Below are positions 51,125-64,000 of a DNA stretch of 64,000 nucleotides, piece by piece. The notes beneath the pieces were generated by a model that saw only the letters and a list, made by a program, of their open reading frames with translations, was not told the DNA's origin and searched no databases. A program made the position numbers and the translations under genes. Each line of letters opens with the position of its first letter. Positions within the stretch are counted from its first letter, which is position 1. The stretch covers positions 6,076,001-6,140,000 of the forward strand of contig NZ_JADWYI010000001.1 of NCBI RefSeq assembly GCF_016904885.1. Direction: 5' to 3'. This DNA comes from Archangium primigenium. Its GTDB lineage: Bacteria; Myxococcota; Myxococcia; Myxococcales; Myxococcaceae.

Positions 51125-52375
51125 ATGGCCCGCATCCGCTCGAACCCCTTCCGCTCCTCGACCCTCCCCACCAACACCCCCAAGACGCCGCAGACGAGCA
51201 CGCCTCCCCGCGCCTCCACGCTCCCGACGTCGGCGCCCACCGCGCGGCCCACGACCCCCGCGGCGACCTCTCCCGCGGCGCGGCCCACCACCCCCGGCGC
51301 GACCTCTCCCGCGACGCGGCCCACCACCCCCGGCGCGACGTCCCCCGCGGTGACCTCTCCCGCCACCACGACCCCCGGCGCGACCGCCACCCCCGGCGCC
51401 GCCAACACCCCCGCGGCCACCGCGGGAGCCCCGGTGAAGCACCCCGGCGCGCCCGCGGGCGGCCCCACCTACAGCCCCTGGTCGCAGACCACCGGCGCGG
51501 CGGGCGACGTGGCGGTGAGCGGTGGTGACAACAAGCTCACGGCGCCCCCGATGGCCCAGCCGAACATGTACCTGGACAAGCAGGGCAAGCCCTTCGCGAA
51601 GGACGTCTTCGGCGGCACGGTGAGCGGCAACAGCACCGGCTCGGCGCAGGCCTCCACCACGGCCTACAGCGGCAACGGGCAGCACCACTACTCGGCCCAG
51701 ACCGAGATCCAGGGGCCCAGCGCCTCCTACCAGGCGCAGGGCGCCCACGCCGGCCGGTTCGGCGTGACGAGCGGCCAGGTCACCGCCAACGCCACCAGCT
51801 TCAAGGGCCAGGCCCAGGCGGGCGTCTCGGCCGACACCAACAGCCACGCCTACACGGCCGCGATCACCGGCAAGGCGGAGACGGGCGTGGGCGTCACGGC
51901 GAGCGCCAACCACGACTTCAACCGCCACGTGGGCGGCTACGTGAAGGGTGAGGCCAAGGCCGGCGCCTCGGCCTACGCCGAGGGTGTGGCCACGGTGGAT
52001 CCCCGCACGGCCACGGCCATGGTCTCCGGCCAGGTGGGCGCGGGCGCCACGGCGGGCGTGTACGGCACGGCGGGCGGTCACCTGGGTCGGCTGCACGGCT
52101 CCATCACCGGCGGCGCGGTGGCCGGCGCGGCGGCCCAGGCGGGCGGCAAGTTCGGCATCGAGAACGGCTTCCTCAAGACCGGGGCGAACGTGAACGCCGC
52201 GGCCGGCGTGGGCACCTCCGTCCAGGCGGACGCCGCCCTCGACCTGCGCCACCACATCAAGCCGGGCATCGCCGCCGGTCTGCGCCCCGGCATCGCCGCC
52301 GCGACGGGCGCGGCCGTCCCCGGGCAGACCCTGCAGCCCGAGCAGTCCTGGATCCAGCGCCACCTGCCCTGGTGA
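51125..52375 (+). CDS. Pro/Thr/Ala-rich protein with Gly/Ala-rich repeat C-domain
   Basis: 416 aa, no signal peptide. Residues about 10-110 are a low-complexity arm with repeats of RPTTPGATSPA. Residues 115-400 are a Gly/Ala/Thr/Ser-rich region with alternating small and polar residues (KAETGVGVTASANHDF, AGASAYAEGVATV, QVGAGATAGVYGTAGGHLG) suggestive of a beta solenoid or channel-like surface protein. Ends QSWIQRHLPW. AAGGAG lies 9 nt before ATG 51125. Not a recognised family. The sigma-54 promoter implies developmental or starvation control. Confidence 0.75.
   Translation: MARIRSNPFRSSTLPTNTPKTPQTSTPPRASTLPTSAPTARPTTPAATSPAARPTTPGATSPATRPTTPGATSPAVTSPATTTPGATATPGAANTPAATAGAPVKHPGAPAGGPTYSPWSQTTGAAGDVAVSGGDNKLTAPPMAQPNMYLDKQGKPFAKDVFGGTVSGNSTGSAQASTTAYSGNGQHHYSAQTEIQGPSASYQAQGAHAGRFGVTSGQVTANATSFKGQAQAGVSADTNSHAYTAAITGKAETGVGVTASANHDFNRHVGGYVKGEAKAGASAYAEGVATVDPRTATAMVSGQVGAGATAGVYGTAGGHLGRLHGSITGGAVAGAAAQAGGKFGIENGFLKTGANVNAAAGVGTSVQADAALDLRHHIKPGIAAGLRPGIAAATGAAVPGQTLQPEQSWIQRHLPW
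51242..51349 (+). repeat. Three 36-bp tandem repeats
   Basis: 51242-51277, 51278-51313 and 51314-51349 differ at only a few bases and encode RPTTPxATSPA units of the arm. Confidence 0.85.
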
Positions 52376-52799
52376 GCGAGTGGTCCGCCAGGGGTTGCCG
52401 CTCGGCTTCCCTGGCGTGTAGGCCGCTCCACCAAGAGATGGGCCTCCCTCGCCTGGGGTAAACCCAGTACACGCATGAGTCGTACCACGCGCTCGCGGCC
52501 ACCACTTGGCAGCGAGCGCGTTGTGTTTTCACGGGACTCAAGACGTCACACGCCACCGCCAACGCGAAGCACCATTGCAGTCCAAGGCTCTGGCCGAGGG
52601 GGTTCAAGCTGTGCGACAACTCCGCGCCGCGACACCTCTGGCGACGTTGGCTGGCTGGTTTCGCCACGGCCTTTCGTTCCTGTCCAGCTCCCTTTGTGCC
52701 AGGGTAACTACACGCGTCTGCCGCTCGACGCTGGCGTCGCCTTGCCGCATGCCCTCTTGCCCGGTTCCGTGGTTTGTTCTTCTTCACCTTTCGCGGACG
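52376..52799. other. 424-bp stretch without a clear gene between convergent genes
   Basis: Both strands have short open frames but with poor codon bias. Directly after the Rhs stop, where an immunity gene would be expected, a 48-codon frame (start ATG about 52753, QRELDRNERPWRNQPANVARG) is the only hint. I see no convincing immunity gene or terminator. Confidence 0.5.
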
Positions 52800-55700
52800 C
52801 TACTGGCTGAACACGTCGGATAGAGGAGTGTCACAGTTGCCCTGGCAGACCCAGTTCGGCGCCATCCGCCGTGTCTGGTGCCGACGGCATTCCTCAAGGG
52901 AGATGTTTGGGTTCGTCCCCCGACAGCTCATCATGTTGAGCTCGTCGGCCATCTGACTCCCCGTAACATTGGGCTTTTGATTCAGCAGGTTGGTAATGCC
53001 CTCGATGTTTTTGCTGGTGGTGAAGGCCGACGGTTGGTTCACCGCGCCAATGTAGACCCGCCCACCCGCTTCGAGGAATTGTGGGCCCATGGCTCCAGCG
53101 CCTCCCCAGCAGAGGAGGTTCACGAAGATCTTCGTTTTGACGCTCGCGGGCATGTTGTTCGGCCAGAAGAAGTGTTTCTCCCCGAACCCAAACCACCCCA
53201 TGGTGCTGAAGATGCCGAAGTTGGTGTTGCCCGCCTTCTTGCACTCATCGCTCGCACATTGCGCGCCATGGTCCGCATTGACGATGACGATCGGCTTTTG
53301 AGTAAGCGCCTGCGACAATTTCCTGACATCTGTGACCACTGTCGGCACGGGCACTTTTGGCGTGAGCACAAGAGGTCCAGAGCGCAACTTGGGGTTTGCG
53401 TCAGTATATGCGTACAGGTTGGCCCCCCCCTGGAGGCTGATCGGGTCGGCCTCGGCATGGCGCCTGATCTCCGGCGGGTAATTGCGGTGATTGTTTTGGT
53501 ATATGCCTGTTTCTGAATCGAGGCCTTGGCCCGGCAGGCGCTCACGCAAGGTGGACGGCACCTTAATGTCCGCGATGTTCTCCTTGGCCGAAGCAATGGG
53601 ATCCGCGACCATGGCCGCGCCACCAAAAGGCACGCCAACGACAATCGTCCCTCCCGTATGGACAATCGCCGCCAACGCGGGGCTTCCGGTCTTCTCGAGG
53701 ACATAGTCCGCCACCGCCTCGGTCTTCTGAGTGGCTTTCTCGTGCAGTGCCTTGACGTTCTGGTGGACGGACTCCCGTGCATCGCGGTTGCGCAGGTACT
53801 TTCCATACGCATACGCCAGGAAGGCGGCCTCGCCCCGGGGGTCGACGAACCGGGTCGGATTGCCCTGGGCATAGGCCCAGGCATGGAGGCCCTCGGGTGT
53901 GTCGAGCTTGCCCGCGACGGGATCCTGACTCAGGAAGCGTCCCGTCCCCGCGTCGTACCAGCGCTGTTGCGCGTAGCTGAGTCCCGCCACCGCATCGAGG
54001 GACTGCCCCGCGTAGGCCAGGCTCGGCCCCGAGGCATCCGGCGTCCCGCCCGCGCGCACGTCTCCCCAGGCGCCATACCTCGACACCTGGGTGGACGTTC
54101 CCACCCGGCCCACCACACTGCCCAGGGCGTCGTGCAGCAGCCGCTCGCCGCCCACGGCCACCACGCCCACCGTGGAGCCCGCGTAGAGCAGCCGGGGACC
54201 GGCCGCGGGGCCCTCCTCCAGCAATTCGTCGTCCGCGCCCCACACGTACCGCGTCGTCCCGCCGCCTGACGAGCGACTCCGCCGCAGGCCATCGAAGCCA
54301 TACAAGTACGTGGCCTCGACCGTCGGCTCCGCGCCCAGCCGCTGGATCCGGGTCAACCGGCCACCCGCGTCCCACCCGTACCGCCGCGTGGTGCCCCCCC
54401 GCACTTCCGAGACGACCCGTCCCCCCTCGTCCGTGGTGACCTGGGCCTCCACGCCGCCCGTCAGCACGTCCTCGATGCGGTGCAACCCGCCCGAGCTGTC
54501 ATAGGAGTATTTCCAGTGCCGGGTCGGATTCGAGGCCTGCGCCAGCCCATCCGGTCCCAGGCTTCCCAGGTAGCCCTCGACGCGCTTCTCCTCCCGCCGC
54601 GAGCCCTCCCCGCCCAGGCCATACAGCTCGGCCTCGCCCGTGGGGTAGCCCACCCCCGTCAGCCGGTCCGCCAGGTCATAGCCATAGCGCGTCACCTCGG
54701 GCGTGGAGGACGTCGGTCCCGTGTACCGCTCCTCCGTCTGGTTTCCCCGATCGTCGTAGGTGTACTCGTAGCGCAGCAGCGGGCTCGCCTCGCGCGTGGA
54801 GGTGATGGAGCGCACCCGCGCGGCGCCATCGTGGACATACTGCTCCACCACCCCGTTCCCGCTCACCTTCGACAGCAGTCCGCCCGGCTCCCACTCCACC
54901 GTCACCGCGGGCCCCTGGCTGCTGGTGACGCTCCGCAGCCGGTCCTGCGCGTCGTAGGCATAGTGGACGGTGCCGGACGGAGAGGTCACCGTCCGCTTCT
55001 GTCCGCTGTCCGTATAGGCATACGTGACGAGGTCTCCACCCCGCTGGAGGGACACGAGCCGGTGGCGCGCGTCATACCCATACACCTGGGACACCGGTCC
55101 CGATTGACGGGTCTCCTGGGCGGACAGGAGTCGATCCCGCCCGTCATAGGCATACGTCACCGCCGTCAGGTCGGTGTACGGCTGGCTCTGGCTCCCGGGC
55201 TGGTACTGCTCTCGCGCCACGCGCTCGCGGCCGTCGTAGGTGCGCTCCACGCGGTCCCCGTTCGGATCCAGCGTGGTGCTCGTCCCGTTCGCCCAGTGCG
55301 TCACCCAGACCGAGAGCCCCCGGGTGCGCCGCAGGGTCCGGCCGAGCGCGTCGTAGGCGAAGGTCTCGGGCGCCGTGCCTCCCGCCGGAGGCGTGAGGGA
55401 GGTGAGCTGGAGCAGGGCGTCGTATTGGTAGACGAAGCGGCCCAGTCCGCCTGGCTGCTCCACCGACTGGAGCTCGCCCCGGGGGCCGTGCGTGTAGACC
55501 CGCCGGGCCCCGCCGCGCGTCGCGCTCGCCAGGAAGCCTCCGGGGTCGTACGTGTACTCCGTCGTGAGCCCCTCGGCCTCCGTGCCGAAGCGCTCCTGCT
55601 TCACCTGGCCCTGGGCGTCGTACTGGAGCGTCCGCGCCCGGCCGGACGGGTCCAGCTCCGACACCAGCCGACCCGCGCCGTCGTACCCGAAGAGTGTCGT

Positions 55701-58700
55701 CTCCGGGCCTTGCTCCCGGCGAGCCAGCCGACCCTCCGTATAGGCGAAGCGCGTCTCGGGACGGCCCGCCAGCGCCTCGCGCGCCAGCACCCCCGCGGCG
55801 TCGTAGGTCCAGGCATCGCGCAGTCCGCCCTGCTCCACGGCCACCACGTTGCCCAGGCTGTCCACCTCCACGCCCGACGTGCTCTCCCGCGTCTGCGCGC
55901 CCGAGCTCGCCCAGCGCTCGGTCCGGGTGGCGCTGCGTCCCGTCCACCGCGTCGTCGCCGAGTAGGTGTAGAAGGGCTCGCCATGCTCCACCTCGGCGAG
56001 CGCCCGGCCGAGGTCGTCGAACTCGCGCGTCTCACGCGACGTCCAGTTCCCCTCGGTGACCGTGCGCGACCGGGCCCACGTGCCGTCATAGGCATACGCC
56101 GTGGTGCGCGGCCCCCGCTGCTCGGACAGCAACAGCGCGCGCGAGTTGAAGCGCTGGGTGACGATCGTCCCCACGGGATTGGTCTCCACCACGTCGCCGG
56201 CGCCCGGATACGTGTAGCTCCAGACCGCCGCCGGCGTGCTCCCCGCCGCCGCGAGCTCGCGCCGTTGCATCCGGCCGAAGTCGTCGTAGGCGAAGGTCCA
56301 CCGCTCCTGCGCGTGGGGCCCCTGCTGGGTGAGCACCAGGCCCCGTGCGTCCGTGGTGTACGTGGTGCGCACGCCCCCGGGCTCGTCCCGGGAGAGGAGA
56401 TGGCCCAGGCCGTCATAGGTCTGGGTGACGGTCCCCAGCACCGGGTGCTGGCGCGTGAGCACCCGGCCCCGCGCGTCATGGGTGAAGTCCACCCGGCCCT
56501 CGCCGGGGACCTCCTCGGAGAGCACCCGCCCGAGCGCGTCCAGCACCCGCGTCTGGGACTCGGTGCGCGCGCCCTCGCCGGTGCCGATGGTGCGTTGGAT
56601 GGCGATCTGGGTGCGGCCCCCCTCGTCCGTGTACGCGCGGAGCTCCTCCCACGGCAGCACGCCCGCGCCGGAGCGGATGTCGCGCGTGTGCCGTGTGAGC
56701 CGGCCCAGCGCGTCCTCGTACGCGAAGGTCTCGCGGAGCCCCAGCGTCAGGTCCTCCCGCGTGAGCACCCGTCCCGCGGCGTCGTACGTGGCCCGCAGGT
56801 CCACGCCGCCCGCGCCGCCGCTCGCGCTGCGCGTGGAGAGCACGCGCCCGAGGGCGTCCACCTGCTGGTCGAACACGTGCTCCGACGCGGCCCCCGGCGA
56901 GCCGCTGCGCTGCCAGACGATGGCGCCCCGGGCGTCCCGCCGCACCTGCTCCTGATGGCCATCCTCGTAGCGCCACGAGATGGGCTGGCCGAGCGTGTCG
57001 TAGCCGATGTGGATCGTGCGCCCCTCGCGGTCCGTGAGCGCCGTGACCTGACCGTCCGCGTCCAACCCATACGACTCCGCGGGCTGGCCGTTGGCGGTGA
57101 GGGCCGTGAGCCGTCCCGCATCGTCGTAGGTGTGGGCCCAGACCACTCCGCGCTCGTCGGTCCTCGACGTCAGCCGGCCGCCCTCGTAGGTGTAGGCCCG
57201 CGTGAGGGAGGCCCCCGCGGCAGCCACCGTCTCTCCGGTGAGCAGGCCCTCCTGGAAGACCGAGGTGCGCGTGGACGCCACGCCCTCCAGGCGCTCCGTC
57301 ACCGTGAGGCGCTGGTCGCCGTAGGCGTACGCGTAGGTCCAGACCTCGGCGGGCTCTCCGGAGCGCGCGTGCCGCAGCACGTGGCCCTGGCCGTCATGGG
57401 TCCAGGTCTCCTCCGCGCCCGTGCGCTGGTCGCGGCGCCGGGTCAACCGCCCGAAGGCGTCGTATTCCAGCACCAGCCCCCGCGCGTCGTCCCCGCGGCG
57501 CACCTGGGCCGAGAGGGGCAGTTGCAGCGGCCCGCCGAAGGACCAGGTGCTGGTCGTGCCGGTCGCGTCCGTCTCCGTGAGGACCCGGCCCTCCGCGTCC
57601 AGCGTGCGCGAGAAGAGGGACACCGCGTCCTTGCCCGTCCCCACCGTCATCCCCATCACGTCCCCCGCCACGGTGCGGGGCGTGGACCAGGCGGTGGAGC
57701 CGGCGGCGGTGGAGAGCGTGCCCGCCTCGGGCTGGCCCCGGGCGCTCCGGGACGTCACGGAGACGAGGGGGCCCGTCAGCCCCGCCACGTCCGAGGCGCC
57801 CGGCACCTGGAGCCCCTGGGCGCGCAGCCGCTCGTCGGCGAGGAACTCGACGGTGCGGCCCTTGGCGGAGCGGGAAGACGCCAGACGCACCTCGCCCCCG
57901 CGTGTGGAGCTGGGCCACGTCATCGTGCGCGCGGGCAGGCTCCCCATTCGTGTGGTGAGGGCGTTGCCGTAGTCGTTGAGCCCCATGCGGGTGAGCGCGC
58001 CCTCGGGCAGGGTCACCGTGCGCTCGCCCGTCGAGCCCCGCACCGTCAGCGGCTGGCCCTGGCTCCCGGTGGAGGTCACCCCGGTGACGCACTCGAAGTC
58101 CTCGAGGTGCGCGTAGCACTCCGCGCCCCCCCGCGTGTAGACGGCCTTCCACTGAGGCTGGCCGGCCACCTCGAGGCGGGCCTCGGACAGCTCGTTGAGG
58201 GCCCGCGAGGCGTCCCGGCCTGGCAGGCCCCCGGGCACCGGCGCGTAGGTGTAGCGCCAGCGCTGGGCGGGAGGATCCGTGGTGCGCTCGGCCTCCAACA
58301 GGTTGCCCCACGTGTCGTGCGTGAAGCGCACGGTGTGCAGGGGCGCGCCGCCCTGGGAGAGCACCACCCCCGCGAGCAGCTTGAAGCCCTCGCGGCGCGC
58401 CAGGGCCTTGAGCAGGCCCGAGGCGTCCGCGGGCAGGCCGGTGCAGTCCTCCTGGGAGAAGTCCGCGCAGTACTTGAACTCCAGCGCGAGCGCGCCGGGC
58501 GTGCGCTCCACGCGGGTGAGGCGGTTGGTCTCCTCGGCATAGGTGAAGTGGGTCCACCCCTCGGACTCGCCGCGGCCGTGGCCGTCATGGAACTTCGTGA
58601 GCAGCCACTTGCGGCGCCCCTCCTGGTCGCGCTTCACGGCCGGCCGGTCGAACCGGTACACGTGGCCGTACTCCGTGGTGACCTCCACCCCACGGCCCGT

Positions 58701-61700
58701 CACCTCCAGCGACATGCCGTGGGTCTTGTCCGTCTGGCATTGGCGCGCGGTGAGCGCCGCCGCGTCCACCTGCAGGCACGTGTTGAATCCCCAGGCCTGA
58801 CCGCCGAGCACCACCACGTAGCGCCCGAGCGTCTCCTCCCAGACGAAGCCGTCGTGCTCGTGCCGCCAGCCGACGCCCAGCGCGGAGGGCAGATCGTTCT
58901 GGTTGGAGTAGGTGCGCGAGAAGGAGACGGTCTCGGCGTACTGCGGCACGGAGAAGTCGGTGTGGGTGAAGGACAGCCGCAGGTCCGCCAGGCCGATGCC
59001 GTCCACGGAGGGCTGGCCGGGCGCCCGCGCGGTGAGGCCCTGGAAGCGGCCCCGGGGAATGCCCAGCCGGAGCGAGTCGTGCTTGGGCCGGGGCAGCTCG
59101 GCGTCCGTGACGAGGTAGATGCCGGAGGGGCTCGTGTCCGTGCCGGGCATGGCCGTGAGGGACGCGGGCAGGGCCAGCCGGAGGTGGCGGGCGCCCCCCG
59201 CGCCAGCGGCCGTTTCCTGCACCAGCCGCGCCGTGGCCCGGCCGCCCGCCACGTCCTGGACGGTGTAGCCGCCCGTCCCCGTCCAGTGCAGCAAGGCCTC
59301 CTTGATGAGGGCGTTGCTCCCGCCACAGTCCTCGGTGGTGCACAGCCGGACGCGTCCGCGCTCCAGCTGTTGGGGGCCCAGGAAGAAGTGCGCCTCGTTC
59401 AACTGGGAGATGGGCCGATCCAGCACCGGCCTGCCCTGGGCCTCCTCCACCGAGCGCGCCGCGGTGAACGCGCTGGCCACGCCGACGTAGTCCTCGCGCA
59501 GGGACAACCCGTCGAAGTTGAAGCGGTACAGCACGTTCTCCGCGTTGCCGCGCAGGTACACCTCCAGGTAGACGACGTCGCTGGCGCTGAGCACCTCGGG
59601 CACGTACTCGCCCTCGCACGAGCCGCGCAGGGTGCCCCGGGCGGCATCCACCTCGATCGGGCACTCGATGCCGAACGCGTCGCTGCCCAGCCGCAGCGCG
59701 TACTCGCCGCTCAGGGTCTCCGCGCGTCCTGGATCCCCCGGCGCGAGCAGGTGCAGCAGGAACGCATAGGACACGTCCTCGAGGCTCGCGGCGGGAGGCG
59801 TGCCCGACGTGCCTCCATCCCACAGGGGGCGCGTCTCGCGATCCGTGCGCGCCGACACCTCGGCCGAGCCCACTTCCAGCACGCGGAACTCGTGCTCGCG
59901 CGCCCGGTCGTAGCGCTCCACCCGCGCGCCCCCGTCCGTCTCCAGGCTCCGGTAGACGTTCTTGAGCTGCACCGCGGCCCGGGGCAGTCCGGGCGCGCCC
60001 ACCCCGTCACTGAAGTCCGGCGGCGGCGCGTTGCGCTCGGCGGGCTGGAGGACGCCGTCGTGGTTGAGGTCGCGCGGGAAGACGGAGTGTCCCACCACCT
60101 GCACGTAGTGGTTGGCGCGCGGCAGGTTGTTGAGCTCCACCGCGCGGCCGTCCTGGCCCACGAGCCGCAAGGCGGTCTGCACGGTGGACGTGGAGCGACC
60201 CGGGGGCACGGGGAAGGTGGCCACCACGGGCTCCTCCACCGCCGAGCCGGTGATGCGCACCACGCGCCCCGCCAGCGGCGGCACCCCCGCGGGGACCGGG
60301 GACAGCGCGCGGTCGTCCTTCAAGCAGACGGCGCGCTGCTCGTCGGTGAGCGGCGGGGTGAACTCGGCGCAGTAGCGCTCGAGCACGTGGCCCGGGAGGC
60401 CCTCGTCCACGAGGCGGCCGGGCGCGCAGCCGCCACCATCCTCCTTGACGCCCCCGTCACACGACGCCTCCGCCGGGGGCCGTGGCACGGGCGCGGGCCG
60501 CGCGGGGGCGGGCGCGCGGCGCACGCGCCAGTCGGTGACGATGCGGATGAATTCGTCCCGCGTGGTGGCCGCGCCCCCGTGCCGCACGAGGCTGGCCTCC
60601 ATCGGCCGCTCCACCCCTTGCGCCCGGGCGCGGCGATCCACACGCACGTCGATCTCCGGCGGGTAGAGCCGCAGGTCCGCCGGGATGCCCAGCTCCTGGA
60701 GGGTGCAGCGCGAGAGCGGCACGCTCTGGCCGCCCTCGATGACGGTGAGCGGTCCTCCCGCGGCATCGTCCGCCGCGCAGCGCCCGTCCGCGTCGCGGGT
60801 CGAGCCCACGATGGGCGGCACGGTGACGGTGTCCAGTCCGGCGTGGCCGGTGGCGTGGTTGATGGCGAACACCACCAGCCGGTCTCCGGGCACCAGCCGC
60901 GTGGCGTTGCGCCGCAGGGAGGGAGGCACCGCGTCCCCCATCCACCGCAGCGCCGAGGGCCCCATGCGCAGCTGGGCATAGCGGGCCTGGGCGCCCGAGG
61001 CCGGCGTCGCGTCGCAGTCGAACGGGTGCGCCACGGTGTAGGTGGCGATGGGCTCGCGCGGATCCTGCTCGAGGAAGAAGTGGACCTCGGTGGTGCGCAC
61101 CTCCTCGGGAGACAGGCCCAGCACCCGCCCCGTGCCGGGCTCGCGCGAGGACTCGCACGCGGGAGGCAGGGGGTGGCCTTCCCGGTCCACGAAGGTGAGC
61201 TGGCCGTGGAGGTAGCGCGCGTCGAGGGAGATGACGCCGGTGGCCACCTGCTCCTGGGTGAACCACACCTCGCTGACGGGGGCGCACTCGGCGATGGCGG
61301 CGTTGGTGAAGAGCTGCGTCTGCACCCGGCCCGCCGCGTCCGTCCAGGCCCGCACGCGCGGCCAGGGGGGCAGGTTCACGCAGGCGCGCACGAGCGTGGG
61401 CGGCAGGAAGAAGCTGCTCAGGTGCGGGATCGTCGTCACGAAGCGGCCGTCCGGACCCGACACCGCGGCGCCATTGCCCCACGTGCCCTCCAGGAAGACG
61501 GGCATGCCCGCGAAGCGCACCAGGCCGTTGGCCTCCAAGCCCTCGGCCGAGGACGCGGACACGCGGTGCACACGCAACCGCCACGCGGCGCCTCCGTCCG
61601 GAGCGGCGCGGGGATCCACCGTCAGCTCGGCGTCCACGCGCACCGAGTCGCGGCCCCGCGCGGTGCTCGCCGCGAGGGTCAGCTGGGTGGTGCCCGGCAC

Positions 61701-64000
61701 GAGCTCCACCTCGGAGGAGAGCTCCACCCGGGTGCCCTGGGGGCTCTCCTGACGCCACGGACGGCCCGCGGGCGGACCCAGCACCTGGCCCCCGGGTCCC
61801 TTCGCCGTCACCGTGGCGACGAGCGGCGACTCCGCTCCGGCGGCCGGGGGCGAGAGGACGCGGGCCATGAACGCGAGCGGCAGGCGGTAGCTCCCGCCCG
61901 ACGTCAACACCACGGACTGGCCCTCGACGAGCAGGCCCGAGTCCAGCGTGAGGGCGACGGCCTGCTCGCGCGGTCCCGCCACGTACCCGGACGCCACCAC
62001 CTGGACGGGGGTGATGCCCGGCGGATTGAGCCAGGACGCGCCCGGCACCAGGCCCTGGGCGGTGCGGCCCGGCGAGGCACTGGCTGGAGGCGCCGACGCC
62101 TCGGGGAGCATCAGATAGCCGAAGTACTCGAGCGAGCCGGCCTCCACGGGCGCCGCGGAGACGAGCCGCGTGCCGTCCGCGTTCACGGTGGCCAGGCCCA
62201 CCGGACGCAGCCGCAGCGCGTCGGGCGCGTAGGCGAACAGCAAGGCCTGGTGGCCGGGAGGGGCCGCGTCGCGGTTGGGCAGGCGCAGCGTCACGGGCGC
62301 CACCAGTCGCGTGCCCGCGGGCTGGAGCTGCCACAGCCTCGCGGGGCCCACCGTCCCCTCGAAGGGCACCGGTCGCGCCAGCGCGGGCAGCGCGGTGGCC
62401 GTCACCACGCCCCGGGTGGTGCCGTCCGCGAACGTCAGTCCCCCCGCGGGAATGTCCACCTCCAGCGCGCCGTGCTTCCCACCCAAAGCGAGGTGCACGG
62501 GCCCCGCCGTGTCCACCGTCTCGGCGGAGGCCAGGTCCACGGGAACCCGCATCAGCGGGGCGTCCACGTTGTCCCGCTCCGCCTCCACCGCGAAGCCGCG
62601 CCGCACCGTGGGGTACTGCGTCCCCGGGGCCGCCGCGCCGCCCTCGTAGCGCAGCACCACCGGGCCCGCCGTCACGCCCGCCAGCGCCCAGGTGCCGTCC
62701 GGCCCCGTGTGCGTGGACACCCCCTGCCCCTCCACCTCGATCCGCACGTCCGGCTGGGGCTCGTGGTGCTCGTCCACCACGGCGCCACTCAACCGCGTCA
62801 GCGGCCGACGCACCGTGAAGCCGCTGCGGAACTCCCCCTGCATCCCCGGCCCCTGGACCGCCTCCACCCCCGCCACGCGCACCTGGAGCGTCGCCGACTC
62901 CGGCAGCGGCTCGCGGGCGATGAAGGACACCGTCTGGCCTCCCGGCGCCACCGACCAGCCCCCCGCGAGCGGCAGGCCCTGGGCGAGCACCGTGAAGCCG
63001 CCCCGCACCGACTCCGCCTTCACCGGCTTGTTGAAGGCCACGTTCACCAGCGCGTCCGGCGCCACGCCCTCGCGCTGGTCCGGCGGATCCACGCCCGTGA
63101 CGGTCAGCGGCTCGGTGCGGGCATCCCGGTAGCGCACTCGTACGGAGGCCGTGCCGGTGAGGCCCAGCGAGTCGCGCGCCCGCAGGGCGATGACGTTCTC
63201 CCCGAGCGCCAGCGGCACCTGGGCCGTGTACTCGCCCGGGCCCGACAGGGTGGCGAGGCCCGTGCCGATGTGCACCTCGGCCAGGGGGTTCACGGCCTCC
63301 ACGCGCACCGTCACCCGCACCACCGGCTCGCGCGCCTCCGCGCCCTCCGCCGGCTCCAGCACGCGCAGCCTCGGCGGCATTCCGTCCACGCGCACCGTGC
63401 GGCTCACGTGCGAGCGGTTGCCCGCCAGGTCCACCGCCTCCACGTCGAGCGTGTTGTCCCCGGGCGTCAGCGGCACCGAGGCGGAGAAGTGTCCGCCCAG
63501 CACGGGCGTGGGCTCCCCGTTCACGCTCACGCCCGCCAGGTGCGCATCCCCGGCGAGGCCCTCCACGAGCAAGGGAGACTCGGACACGACCGTCACCGGC
63601 TGCTCGGGTTGGAGCACCTCGAGGAACGGCGGCGTCTGGTCCACCCGCACCGCGCGGCGCGCCTCCGCGCTCCGGCCGAGCGCGTCCACCACCCGCACCC
63701 GCAGCAGGGTGGCGCCCTCGGGCAGGGCCAGCGCGGTGGAGAACTGGCGTCCCGTTACCGCCACGGGCACCTCCTCCACCGTCACCTGGAACGGCGCGGT
63801 GCCCCGCTCCACGCGGCCCAGCACCGGCACGCGCGCCTGCCCCCACAAGCTGTCCTCCGCCGGTGAGACGAGCACCAGCTCCGGCGGCGCCTCCCCTTCC
63901 CCGCCCGCGTCGGGTGGCCCGCCCGCGTCCGGCGTCCCACCGCCCCCGTCGGCCGGAGGCGGCGCTCCCGCGTCGGGCGTCTCGCCCCCGCTGCCCCCGT
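52800..64000 (-). CDS. Giant Rhs-repeat surface protein with variable C-terminal tip, 5' partial
   Basis: At least 3732 codons; the frame is open to the right edge, and a PDAGG-rich linker there implies a lipoprotein N-terminus outside. From N to C: Ig-like domains and an SbsA-type one (about 62.8-63.9 kb), a carboxypeptidase-regulatory-like segment (SGAVVDEHHEPQPDV), beta-rich region, Rhs entry (FSVPQYAETVSFSRTYSNQNDLP near 58.9 kb), YD repeats to about 54.2 kb, core end NPTRFVDPRGEA (53.82 kb), and a 336-residue tip. The tip holds a second core-like motif (EADPISLQGGANLYAYTD), then IVIVNADHG and NLLCWGGAG. The stop is at 52800. A toxin-delivery role is inferred. Confidence 0.85.
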   Translation of the reverse strand, partial: GGSGGETPDAGAPPPADGGGGTPDAGGPPDAGGEGEAPPELVLVSPAEDSLWGQARVPVLGRVERGTAPFQVTVEEVPVAVTGRQFSTALALPEGATLLRVRVVDALGRSAEARRAVRVDQTPPFLEVLQPEQPVTVVSESPLLVEGLAGDAHLAGVSVNGEPTPVLGGHFSASVPLTPGDNTLDVEAVDLAGNRSHVSRTVRVDGMPPRLRVLEPAEGAEAREPVVRVTVRVEAVNPLAEVHIGTGLATLSGPGEYTAQVPLALGENVIALRARDSLGLTGTASVRVRYRDARTEPLTVTGVDPPDQREGVAPDALVNVAFNKPVKAESVRGGFTVLAQGLPLAGGWSVAPGGQTVSFIAREPLPESATLQVRVAGVEAVQGPGMQGEFRSGFTVRRPLTRLSGAVVDEHHEPQPDVRIEVEGQGVSTHTGPDGTWALAGVTAGPVVLRYEGGAAAPGTQYPTVRRGFAVEAERDNVDAPLMRVPVDLASAETVDTAGPVHLALGGKHGALEVDIPAGGLTFADGTTRGVVTATALPALARPVPFEGTVGPARLWQLQPAGTRLVAPVTLRLPNRDAAPPGHQALLFAYAPDALRLRPVGLATVNADGTRLVSAAPVEAGSLEYFGYLMLPEASAPPASASPGRTAQGLVPGASWLNPPGITPVQVVASGYVAGPREQAVALTLDSGLLVEGQSVVLTSGGSYRLPLAFMARVLSPPAAGAESPLVATVTAKGPGGQVLGPPAGRPWRQESPQGTRVELSSEVELVPGTTQLTLAASTARGRDSVRVDAELTVDPRAAPDGGAAWRLRVHRVSASSAEGLEANGLVRFAGMPVFLEGTWGNGAAVSGPDGRFVTTIPHLSSFFLPPTLVRACVNLPPWPRVRAWTDAAGRVQTQLFTNAAIAECAPVSEVWFTQEQVATGVISLDARYLHGQLTFVDREGHPLPPACESSREPGTGRVLGLSPEEVRTTEVHFFLEQDPREPIATYTVAHPFDCDATPASGAQARYAQLRMGPSALRWMGDAVPPSLRRNATRLVPGDRLVVFAINHATGHAGLDTVTVPPIVGSTRDADGRCAADDAAGGPLTVIEGGQSVPLSRCTLQELGIPADLRLYPPEIDVRVDRRARAQGVERPMEASLVRHGGAATTRDEFIRIVTDWRVRRAPAPARPAPVPRPPAEASCDGGVKEDGGGCAPGRLVDEGLPGHVLERYCAEFTPPLTDEQRAVCLKDDRALSPVPAGVPPLAGRVVRITGSAVEEPVVATFPVPPGRSTSTVQTALRLVGQDGRAVELNNLPRANHYVQVVGHSVFPRDLNHDGVLQPAERNAPPPDFSDGVGAPGLPRAAVQLKNVYRSLETDGGARVERYDRAREHEFRVLEVGSAEVSARTDRETRPLWDGGTSGTPPAASLEDVSYAFLLHLLAPGDPGRAETLSGEYALRLGSDAFGIECPIEVDAARGTLRGSCEGEYVPEVLSASDVVYLEVYLRGNAENVLYRFNFDGLSLREDYVGVASAFTAARSVEEAQGRPVLDRPISQLNEAHFFLGPQQLERGRVRLCTTEDCGGSNALIKEALLHWTGTGGYTVQDVAGGRATARLVQETAAGAGGARHLRLALPASLTAMPGTDTSPSGIYLVTDAELPRPKHDSLRLGIPRGRFQGLTARAPGQPSVDGIGLADLRLSFTHTDFSVPQYAETVSFSRTYSNQNDLPSALGVGWRHEHDGFVWEETLGRYVVVLGGQAWGFNTCLQVDAAALTARQCQTDKTHGMSLEVTGRGVEVTTEYGHVYRFDRPAVKRDQEGRRKWLLTKFHDGHGRGESEGWTHFTYAEETNRLTRVERTPGALALEFKYCADFSQEDCTGLPADASGLLKALARREGFKLLAGVVLSQGGAPLHTVRFTHDTWGNLLEAERTTDPPAQRWRYTYAPVPGGLPGRDASRALNELSEARLEVAGQPQWKAVYTRGGAECYAHLEDFECVTGVTSTGSQGQPLTVRGSTGERTVTLPEGALTRMGLNDYGNALTTRMGSLPARTMTWPSSTRGGEVRLASSRSAKGRTVEFLADERLRAQGLQVPGASDVAGLTGPLVSVTSRSARGQPEAGTLSTAAGSTAWSTPRTVAGDVMGMTVGTGKDAVSLFSRTLDAEGRVLTETDATGTTSTWSFGGPLQLPLSAQVRRGDDARGLVLEYDAFGRLTRRRDQRTGAEETWTHDGQGHVLRHARSGEPAEVWTYAYAYGDQRLTVTERLEGVASTRTSVFQEGLLTGETVAAAGASLTRAYTYEGGRLTSRTDERGVVWAHTYDDAGRLTALTANGQPAESYGLDADGQVTALTDREGRTIHIGYDTLGQPISWRYEDGHQEQVRRDARGAIVWQRSGSPGAASEHVFDQQVDALGRVLSTRSASGGAGGVDLRATYDAAGRVLTREDLTLGLRETFAYEDALGRLTRHTRDIRSGAGVLPWEELRAYTDEGGRTQIAIQRTIGTGEGARTESQTRVLDALGRVLSEEVPGEGRVDFTHDARGRVLTRQHPVLGTVTQTYDGLGHLLSRDEPGGVRTTYTTDARGLVLTQQGPHAQERWTFAYDDFGRMQRRELAAAGSTPAAVWSYTYPGAGDVVETNPVGTIVTQRFNSRALLLSEQRGPRTTAYAYDGTWARSRTVTEGNWTSRETREFDDLGRALAEVEHGEPFYTYSATTRWTGRSATRTERWASSGAQTRESTSGVEVDSLGNVVAVEQGGLRDAWTYDAAGVLAREALAGRPETRFAYTEGRLARREQGPETTLFGYDGAGRLVSELDPSGRARTLQYDAQGQVKQERFGTEAEGLTTEYTYDPGGFLASATRGGARRVYTHGPRGELQSVEQPGGLGRFVYQYDALLQLTSLTPPAGGTAPETFAYDALGRTLRRTRGLSVWVTHWANGTSTTLDPNGDRVERTYDGRERVAREQYQPGSQSQPYTDLTAVTYAYDGRDRLLSAQETRQSGPVSQVYGYDARHRLVSLQRGGDLVTYAYTDSGQKRTVTSPSGTVHYAYDAQDRLRSVTSSQGPAVTVEWEPGGLLSKVSGNGVVEQYVHDGAARVRSITSTREASPLLRYEYTYDDRGNQTEERYTGPTSSTPEVTRYGYDLADRLTGVGYPTGEAELYGLGGEGSRREEKRVEGYLGSLGPDGLAQASNPTRHWKYSYDSSGGLHRIEDVLTGGVEAQVTTDEGGRVVSEVRGGTTRRYGWDAGGRLTRIQRLGAEPTVEATYLYGFDGLRRSRSSGGGTTRYVWGADDELLEEGPAAGPRLLYAGSTVGVVAVGGERLLHDALGSVVGRVGTSTQVSRYGAWGDVRAGGTPDASGPSLAYAGQSLDAVAGLSYAQQRWYDAGTGRFLSQDPVAGKLDTPEGLHAWAYAQGNPTRFVDPRGEAAFLAYAYGKYLRNRDARESVHQNVKALHEKATQKTEAVADYVLEKTGSPALAAIVHTGGTIVVGVPFGGAAMVADPIASAKENIADIKVPSTLRERLPGQGLDSETGIYQNNHRNYPPEIRRHAEADPISLQGGANLYAYTDANPKLRSGPLVLTPKVPVPTVVTDVRKLSQALTQKPIVIVNADHGAQCASDECKKAGNTNFGIFSTMGWFGFGEKHFFWPNNMPASVKTKIFVNLLCWGGAGAMGPQFLEAGGRVYIGAVNQPSAFTTSKNIEGITNLLNQKPNVTGSQMADELNMMSCRGTNPNISLEECRRHQTRRMAPNWVCQGNCDTPLSDVFSQ

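What the first reader, a model, noticed from the sequence alone, without database searches (positions are those of the whole stretch)
52800..53815. Rhs tip with a possible caspase/CHAT-like protease and a second, degenerate Rhs core
After NPTRFVDPRGEA the sequence loses its GC-biased codons. About 100 residues on lies EADPISLQGGANLYAYTD, which reads like an old Rhs core end, as if a new tip had been joined behind another tip. The final 170 residues have IVIVNADHGAQ (His codon 53268-53270) and IFVNLLCWGGAGAMG (Cys codon 53109-53111) followed by GGRVYIGAVNQP. This order and spacing match the His-Gly and Cys-Gly loops of clan CD peptidases (caspase, CHAT, gingipain). An Rhs toxin of that class would be unusual.
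Basis: partly seen in the sequence, partly recalled or inferred. Interest (0 to 1): 0.8.

Follow-up and report, generated by a model that had tools for sequence, protein, structure and literature searches.

The report
Rhs toxin with stacked second core
A giant toxin protein of a probable myxobacterium carries a new tip spliced on behind a worn-out piece of another toxin's shell; the tip may be a cysteine protease, but that is not proven.

Summary
Behind its own intact core end (53832-54077, motif PTRFVDPRG) the Rhs frame has a 93-residue linker, a second Rhs core end of about 55 residues (53388-53552; TIGR03696, 50.6 bits, E 2.1e-13) and a 195-residue tip without relatives in the collections searched. 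The second core is of another Rhs subfamily and has Gly where 22 of 22 readable relatives have the cleavage Asp. Of 20 tips of this Rhs family only this one holds a second core: a foreign Rhs end was joined in frame behind a resident one. The lower GC3 is ordinary for such tips. The His-Gly and Cys-Gly-Gly motifs are real, 53 residues apart (51-54 in 11 of 12 myxobacterial caspases). Clan CD is plausible but unproven: motif-pair scores are uncommon (4 of 289 control frames reach them on a caspase profile, 0 on CHAT), yet no profile search finds a clan CD family, only 39 residues precede the His (73-88 in the caspases), and both AlphaFold models failed. Caspase-like Rhs tips were predicted in 2012, and a borderline Peptidase_C80-tipped Rhs turned up here. 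No credible immunity gene follows, unlike in 18 of 19 relatives examined.

The parts
52800..63998 (-). giant Rhs protein; frame runs out of the window, probable start codon at window-equivalent position 65384 (4,194 aa)
   Evidence: 17 RHS_repeat stretches, DUF6531, Ig-like domains, N-terminus that reads as a lipoprotein signal (by eye)
53832..54077 (-). resident (first) Rhs core end, ending in PTRFVDPRG, the PxxxxDPxG cleavage motif
   Evidence: TIGR03696 on residues 3308-3389 of the window frame; motif position
53553..53831 (-). 93-residue linker, GC3 0.758, no relatives found in 195 genomes
53388..53552 (-). second Rhs core end, degenerate, of another Rhs subfamily; cleavage Asp replaced by Gly just behind it
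   Evidence: TIGR03696 2.1e-13, S. bongori Rhs core 2.6e-7, relatives
52803..53387 (-). 195-residue orphan tip, seven Cys, putative clan CD-like cysteine peptidase toxin
53268..53270 (-). His codon of IVIVNADHG (tip residue 40)
53109..53111 (-). Cys codon of KIFVNLLCWGG (tip residue 93)
52587..52788 (-). repeat DNA directly behind the stop, where relatives have the presumed immunity gene
   Evidence: 52680-52788 is 83% identical to DNA in L136; 52587-52675 is 75% and 70% identical to stretches in L137 and L138

Best explanation
This is the C-terminal end of a giant, probably lipoprotein-anchored Rhs polymorphic toxin of a myxobacterium, whose tip was exchanged. Shown by sequence: the resident shell end is intact; behind a 93-residue linker sits a 55-residue remnant of another kind of Rhs core whose cleavage site is destroyed, followed by a 195-residue tip for which no relative was found. 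Inferred: recombination joined [foreign Rhs core end + its toxin] in frame to the resident gene; the protein is cleaved only at the first, intact PxxxxDPxG motif, so the released fragment carries linker, dead core remnant and tip together. Inferred and least certain: the tip is a small cysteine peptidase of the clan CD kind, with His40 in the loop after one strand and Cys93 in the loop after the next, acting as a toxin rather than a releasing protease because nothing follows it. The confidence is for the whole statement; for the exchange alone I would say 0.85.
For: Second core; unique to this tip among 20 of the family. It resembles (42-57% identity in the 20 closest) Rhs frames of which 16 of those 20 have 1,175-1,565 codons. 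The cleavage Asp is present in 22 of 22 readable relatives (7 of 29 could not be parsed) and is Gly here. First-core motif intact. Clan CD: a strict signature is in 0 of 289 control frames, 3 of 20,000 shuffles and 11 of 12 caspases. Paired-motif score: on a caspase profile 4 of 289 control frames and 7 of 5,000 shuffles reach the tip's 10.2; on a CHAT profile 0 of 289 and 8 of 5,000 reach its 11.9; 12 caspases on the CHAT profile score 3.9-24.9. The Cys flank alone is reached by 1.1-1.2% of 1,155 control Cys sites on the caspase and CHAT profiles. H-to-C spacing 53, against 51-54 in 11 of 12 caspases. The other six Cys fall into three close pairs, leaving Cys93 single (positions; pairing is inference).
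Against: No clan CD family in Pfam, NCBIfam, PHROGs, PADLOC or PDB sequences. hhalign against 12 caspases, 16 CHAT and 6 gingipain-like domains gives 0.1-0.2%. With wider flanks the tip is ordinary: on the caspase profile 181 of 382 control HG sites and 53 of 248 control Cys sites score as well, on the CHAT profile 241 of 382 and 24 of 248. The HG flank is weak even when short (8-11% of 394 control sites score as well; 27% on a pooled profile), and on a four-sequence C80 profile 57% (HG) and 35% (Cys) do. On the caspase profile the tip's 10.2 lies just below the lowest of 16 CHAT domains (10.8-19.4) and far below caspases left out in turn (30.9-60.6); only 86 of the 289 controls have any HG..Cys pair, so 4 of 86 is the stricter count; on CHAT the best control (11.3) is close behind. 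The strict signature misses 16 of 16 CHAT domains, so it is a caspase pattern, not a clan CD one. H-to-C spacing is 79-87 in 14 of 16 CHAT domains, 44 in two, 37 in one caspase, and 34-37 in four C80-like ones, so spacing alone decides nothing. Only 39 residues lie between the second core and His40, against 73-88 before the HG in the 12 caspase segments. AlphaFold failed twice. The motif tests were made after the motif had been noticed, and the clan CD sets were picked with a similar pattern.
Confidence: 0.42

Rival explanations
1. Same tip exchange, but the tip is an unrelated, perhaps disulfide-rich toxin fold; the HG and CWGG motifs are coincidence.
For: No profile support, ordinary wider flanks, short N-terminal part, seven Cys in 195 residues. 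Pfam recognises only 1 of 20 tips of this family at E 0.01, so unlisted folds are the rule here.
Against: Joint His/Cys motif scores and spacing are uncommon in controls.
Confidence: 0.4
2. The tip is a decayed or inactive cassette: the exchange came without an immunity gene, and the new tip is tolerated because it is harmless. (Compatible with either fold.)
For: 18 of 19 relatives examined (of 35 relative places) have an ORF of 80-160 aa with GC3 above GC2 at -14 to +28 nt from the stop; here the only ORF in that place (176 aa, +12) has GC3 0.69 against GC2 0.68 and begins on DNA whose copy in L136 has neither the start codon nor a long frame. The second core is clearly decayed.
Against: The tip frame is open and keeps coding composition. 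One relative (L159) also lacks an adjacent gene. A target absent from the producer would also make immunity needless.
Confidence: 0.25
3. The tip is a clan CD releasing protease that cuts the Rhs protein itself rather than a toxin.
For: Zhang et al. [quoted passage not shown]
Against: According to the same paper those usually sit just upstream of a toxin domain; here the domain is the very C-terminus, and the first core keeps its own cleavage motif.
Confidence: 0.08

Closest known systems
Rhs polymorphic toxins with exchanged tips (Koskiniemi et al. 2014, PMC3967940; Poole et al. 2011, PMC3150448; passages read)
   Same: Conserved Rhs shell, variable C-terminus, tip exchange by recombination with orphan rhs-CT fragments that often carry part of the conserved upstream sequence
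   Different: There the recombination runs through shared sequence (522 bp, 95% identical) and leaves one core; here a foreign core end of another subfamily remains as a second, dead copy inside the tip, and no immunity gene is recognisable
Tox-Caspase domains of polymorphic toxins (Zhang et al. 2012, PMC3482391; passages read)
   Same: C-terminal domain on an RHS protein with His then Cys
   Different: No detectable sequence relation to the clan CD families tested; fold not shown here
Bacterial teneurin-like proteins, TLPs (PMC13018210; abstract, passages and sections 7 and 8 read)
   Same: Giant surface Rhs/YD proteins, lipoprotein-type in Myxococcota, almost always with an immunity gene behind
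   Different: No NHL domain by Pfam in the scanned parts of this protein; no recognisable immunity gene
Rhs with Peptidase_C80-like tip, locus L231
   Same: Rhs frame in the same phylum (TIGR03696) ending in a clan CD-type domain
   Different: H-to-C spacing 34 instead of 53; matched by Pfam at the border of its cut-off, the window's tip not at all

Membership tests
Rhs polymorphic toxin | RHS repeats and Rhs-associated core domain | tested here: met
   PF05593 in 17 stretches, TIGR03696 in two stretches
Rhs polymorphic toxin | PxxxxDPxG cleavage motif before the tip | tested here: met
   PTRFVDPRG in the first core; the same pattern in 15 of 19 relatives; lost in the second core
Rhs polymorphic toxin | tip differs between related shells | tested here: met
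   best match of the window's tip to the other 19 has E 0.17
Rhs polymorphic toxin | immunity gene directly behind the tip (usual, not strictly defining) | tested here: not met
   only an ORF without codon-position bias on repeat DNA
Clan CD peptidase / Tox-Caspase | His-Gly after a hydrophobic strand, Cys after the next, in this order | tested here: met
   by sequence pattern only, the strands are inferred
Clan CD peptidase / Tox-Caspase | significant match to a clan CD family model | tested here: not met
   Pfam scans at E 1 and 10, NCBIfam; hhalign against C14, CHAT and C25 sets (not run against C80), shown to be blind between C14 and CHAT in this set-up
Clan CD peptidase / Tox-Caspase | caspase-haemoglobinase fold with His and Cys side by side | tested here: inconclusive
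   two AlphaFold models, pLDDT 35.6 and 37.8; no fold search was run on them
Clan CD peptidase / Tox-Caspase | proteolytic activity | not testable with these tools
   needs the bench
Teneurin-like protein | NHL domain | tested here: not met
   no NHL match in the Pfam scans of the frame (E up to 1, E up to 0.01)
Teneurin-like protein | FN-plug and TIP domains | not tested
   the authors' own models are not held
T6SS PAAR-Rhs effector | N-terminal PAAR domain | tested here: not met
   no PAAR match; N-terminus is a signal-like stretch plus Ig-like domains

The most novel reading that the evidence does not exclude
The tip founds a new, minimal clan CD-type toxin family, reduced to about one helix and strand before the His-Gly loop and braced by three disulfides, that was loaded onto a lipoprotein-anchored giant Rhs by joining two Rhs cores of different subfamilies, and it works without an immunity protein because its substrate lies outside the producer's own cells (prey or eukaryote).
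Probability: 0.13. Interest if true: 0.65.

Novelty: new variant of a known kind. Interest (0 to 1): 0.4.

Why it matters
It is a snapshot of tip exchange between two different Rhs subfamilies, with the foreign core end still in place and visibly decayed, next to an apparently missing immunity gene. If the tip is a protease, it adds an uncharted branch to the cysteine-protease toxins of Rhs systems; if not, it is another unknown toxin fold. Either way it is testable with one small construct.

Tried and rejected
Homologues of the tip: none confirmed in genome contigs (two scans; exact 8-residue patterns, so in practice only close relatives could appear), viral contigs (five scans), 195 genomes of the phylum at E 0.001 apart from the window itself. 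At E 10, 63 of 195 genomes (own included) have a match; none of the alignments I looked at carries both the HG and the Cys motif, and one (L022) aligns the Cys with a CxxCH stretch (printout cut, so not all were seen). Plasmids: 2 records, phages: 17 records, all at E 4 or worse; plasmid hit H2 has neither the HG nor the Cys. Three linker matches at E about 0.006 look unrelated by eye. Structure: two single-sequence AlphaFold jobs, both unusable, so no fold search was run. A wide-flank profile test was negative; the short-flank and paired tests were made afterwards and must be read with that in mind. A further paired control, 39 other Rhs tips, is weak because only 1 of 39 has any HG..Cys pair. 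The 12 caspases and 16 CHAT domains are those of 30 loci each that matched a His/Cys pattern, so 18 and 14 were left out; these loci were themselves a part of all matches. Gingipain set: 6 of 14 loci passed a similar filter. The 289 control frames are my own gene calls from twenty 20-kb stretches, unchecked for true clan CD members. The 19 relatives are 19 of 35 relative places; 16 were left out. The GC3 drop was first taken as a mark of recent acquisition; one search showed it is ordinary in this family and I dropped that argument. T6SS PAAR-Rhs and teneurin-like membership were considered and not met.

Papers: PMC3482391 passages; PMC13018210 abstract, passages, sections 7 and 8; PMC3150448 and PMC3967940 passages; all others search listings only. 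Searches for a caspase-like or clan CD Rhs tip in print; for doubled cores: (ten of 560 listed; none is evidently about doubled Rhs cores by its title). I make no claim that it is not in print elsewhere.

Full report
What is there. The window lies in a 9.49-Mb genome. I take it for a myxobacterium from genome size, composition and protein content; no call names it. On the minus strand a single open frame of 4,512 codons ends at 52800. Its probable start lies outside the window, giving 4,194 residues. It begins with a stretch that reads as a lipoprotein signal (by eye), then Ig-like domains (Glucodextran_B, Big families), a carboxypeptidase-regulatory-like match below its cut-off, DUF6531, RHS repeats and a Rhs-associated core.

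The tip. Behind the core end (NPTRFVDPRG, 53832-53861) come a 93-residue linker, a second Rhs core end and 195 further residues. The second core end is certain: TIGR03696 2.1e-13 over profile positions 18-67 of 76, above its cut-off, and solved Rhs cores at 2.6e-7. Among 20 tips of this giant Rhs family (19 relatives and this one), only this one matches TIGR03696 behind the first core.

Where the second core comes from. In 195 genomes of the phylum, 44 (own included) have matches to it at E 1e-4 or better. The 20 closest are 42-57% identical, and 16 of these lie in open frames of 1,175-1,565 codons; the three other genomes of the genus hold 6, 7 and 8 matches, the window's genome only this one. 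Rhs proteins of enterobacterial and Burkholderia plasmids match similarly (1,087 records, all below 60% identity). In the 22 of 29 relatives that could be read, the cleavage Asp is Asp in all 22; here it is Gly, and the RYYDP..GRY stretch is also worn. The role of the two aspartates in Rhs self-cleavage is taken from PMC13018210, section 7. So only the first core should cut (inference).

How it arose. Tip exchange between a main rhs gene and an orphan rhs-CT fragment is documented in Salmonella (PMC3967940, passages). There shared sequence serves as the crossover; here the two cores are of different subfamilies, so the join was probably non-homologous or went through an intermediate (inference). 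Third-position GC falls from 0.94 to about 0.75 from the linker on, but 16 of 19 relatives show the same kind of drop, so this does not date the event.

Immunity. In 19 relatives examined (of 35 relative places), 18 have an ORF of 80-160 residues with GC3 above GC2 starting -14 to +28 nt from the Rhs stop; that these are immunity genes is inference from position and from PMC13018210 and PMC3150448. Here the ORF in that place (176 aa, +12) shows no codon-position bias and begins on DNA that recurs in the same genome, 83% identical over about 110 bases to a stretch upstream of a DUF6310 gene, where the start codon is missing and the frame soon ends. The next real-looking gene is convergent (51125-52375, plus strand; read). 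I therefore see no immunity gene, though an unrecognised or distant one is not excluded.

Clan CD or not. For: the order and context of His40 and Cys93; spacing 53 against 51-54 in 11 of 12 caspases; a strict signature absent from 289 control frames and present in 11 of 12 caspases; paired scores that 4 of 289 and 0 of 289 controls reach; a Cys flank that 1.1-1.2% of 1,155 control Cys sites reach. Against: no library or PDB match; hhalign 0.1-0.2%; wider flanks ordinary; a weak HG flank and an indifferent C80 profile; the tip's caspase-profile score just below the lowest CHAT domain, and 4 of the 86 controls that have any such pair reaching it; the strict signature missing all 16 CHAT domains; 39 residues before His40 against 73-88 in caspases, which leaves little room for the first strands of the fold; no structure model. 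The hhalign test has no power across families: 12 of 12 caspases score 0.2-19% against CHAT. My estimate for a clan CD fold is a little under one half.

Is the idea itself new? No. Tox-Caspase on RHS proteins is listed in PMC3482391. What is new is the stacked, decayed second core and the orphan tip.

Noticed in passing
L011:3382-4230 (just outside the window, upstream of the Rhs gene): A parvulin-type peptidyl-prolyl isomerase (PF00639, 1.2e-20) with a lipoprotein-like start (by eye) overlaps the Rhs start by 4 bases; relatives of it lie upstream of the giant Rhs gene in 7 of 11 relatives examined. Possibly a conserved chaperone-toxin pair.
   Followed up: partly
L231 (G132:C4:586982-587185): Rhs frame of 1,938 codons whose C-terminus matches Peptidase_C80 (25.1 bits, 22.8, cut-off 23.8): a better clan CD tip candidate than the one in the window.
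   Followed up: partly
L229, L230, L232: Peptidase_C80-like domains in proteins that look non-Rhs, with a zinc-ribbon-like, proline-rich part upstream (by eye).
   Followed up: no
window 52587-52788; L136, L137, L138: Repeat DNA shared between the end of the Rhs gene and three other places of the genome, one upstream of a DUF6310 gene, possibly a trace of toxin-cassette movement.
   Followed up: partly
G036:C1:2630005-2637563 (L050, L070): Three matches to the giant Rhs core end about 3.3 kb apart on the minus strand, one in a frame of 6,183 codons and the two downstream ones in frames of about 900: looks like an array of orphan Rhs tips.
   Followed up: no
L011:4230-8978: 1,583-residue protein with an LVIVD-repeat match (4.2e-6) on the same strand directly upstream of the isomerase gene.
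   Followed up: no
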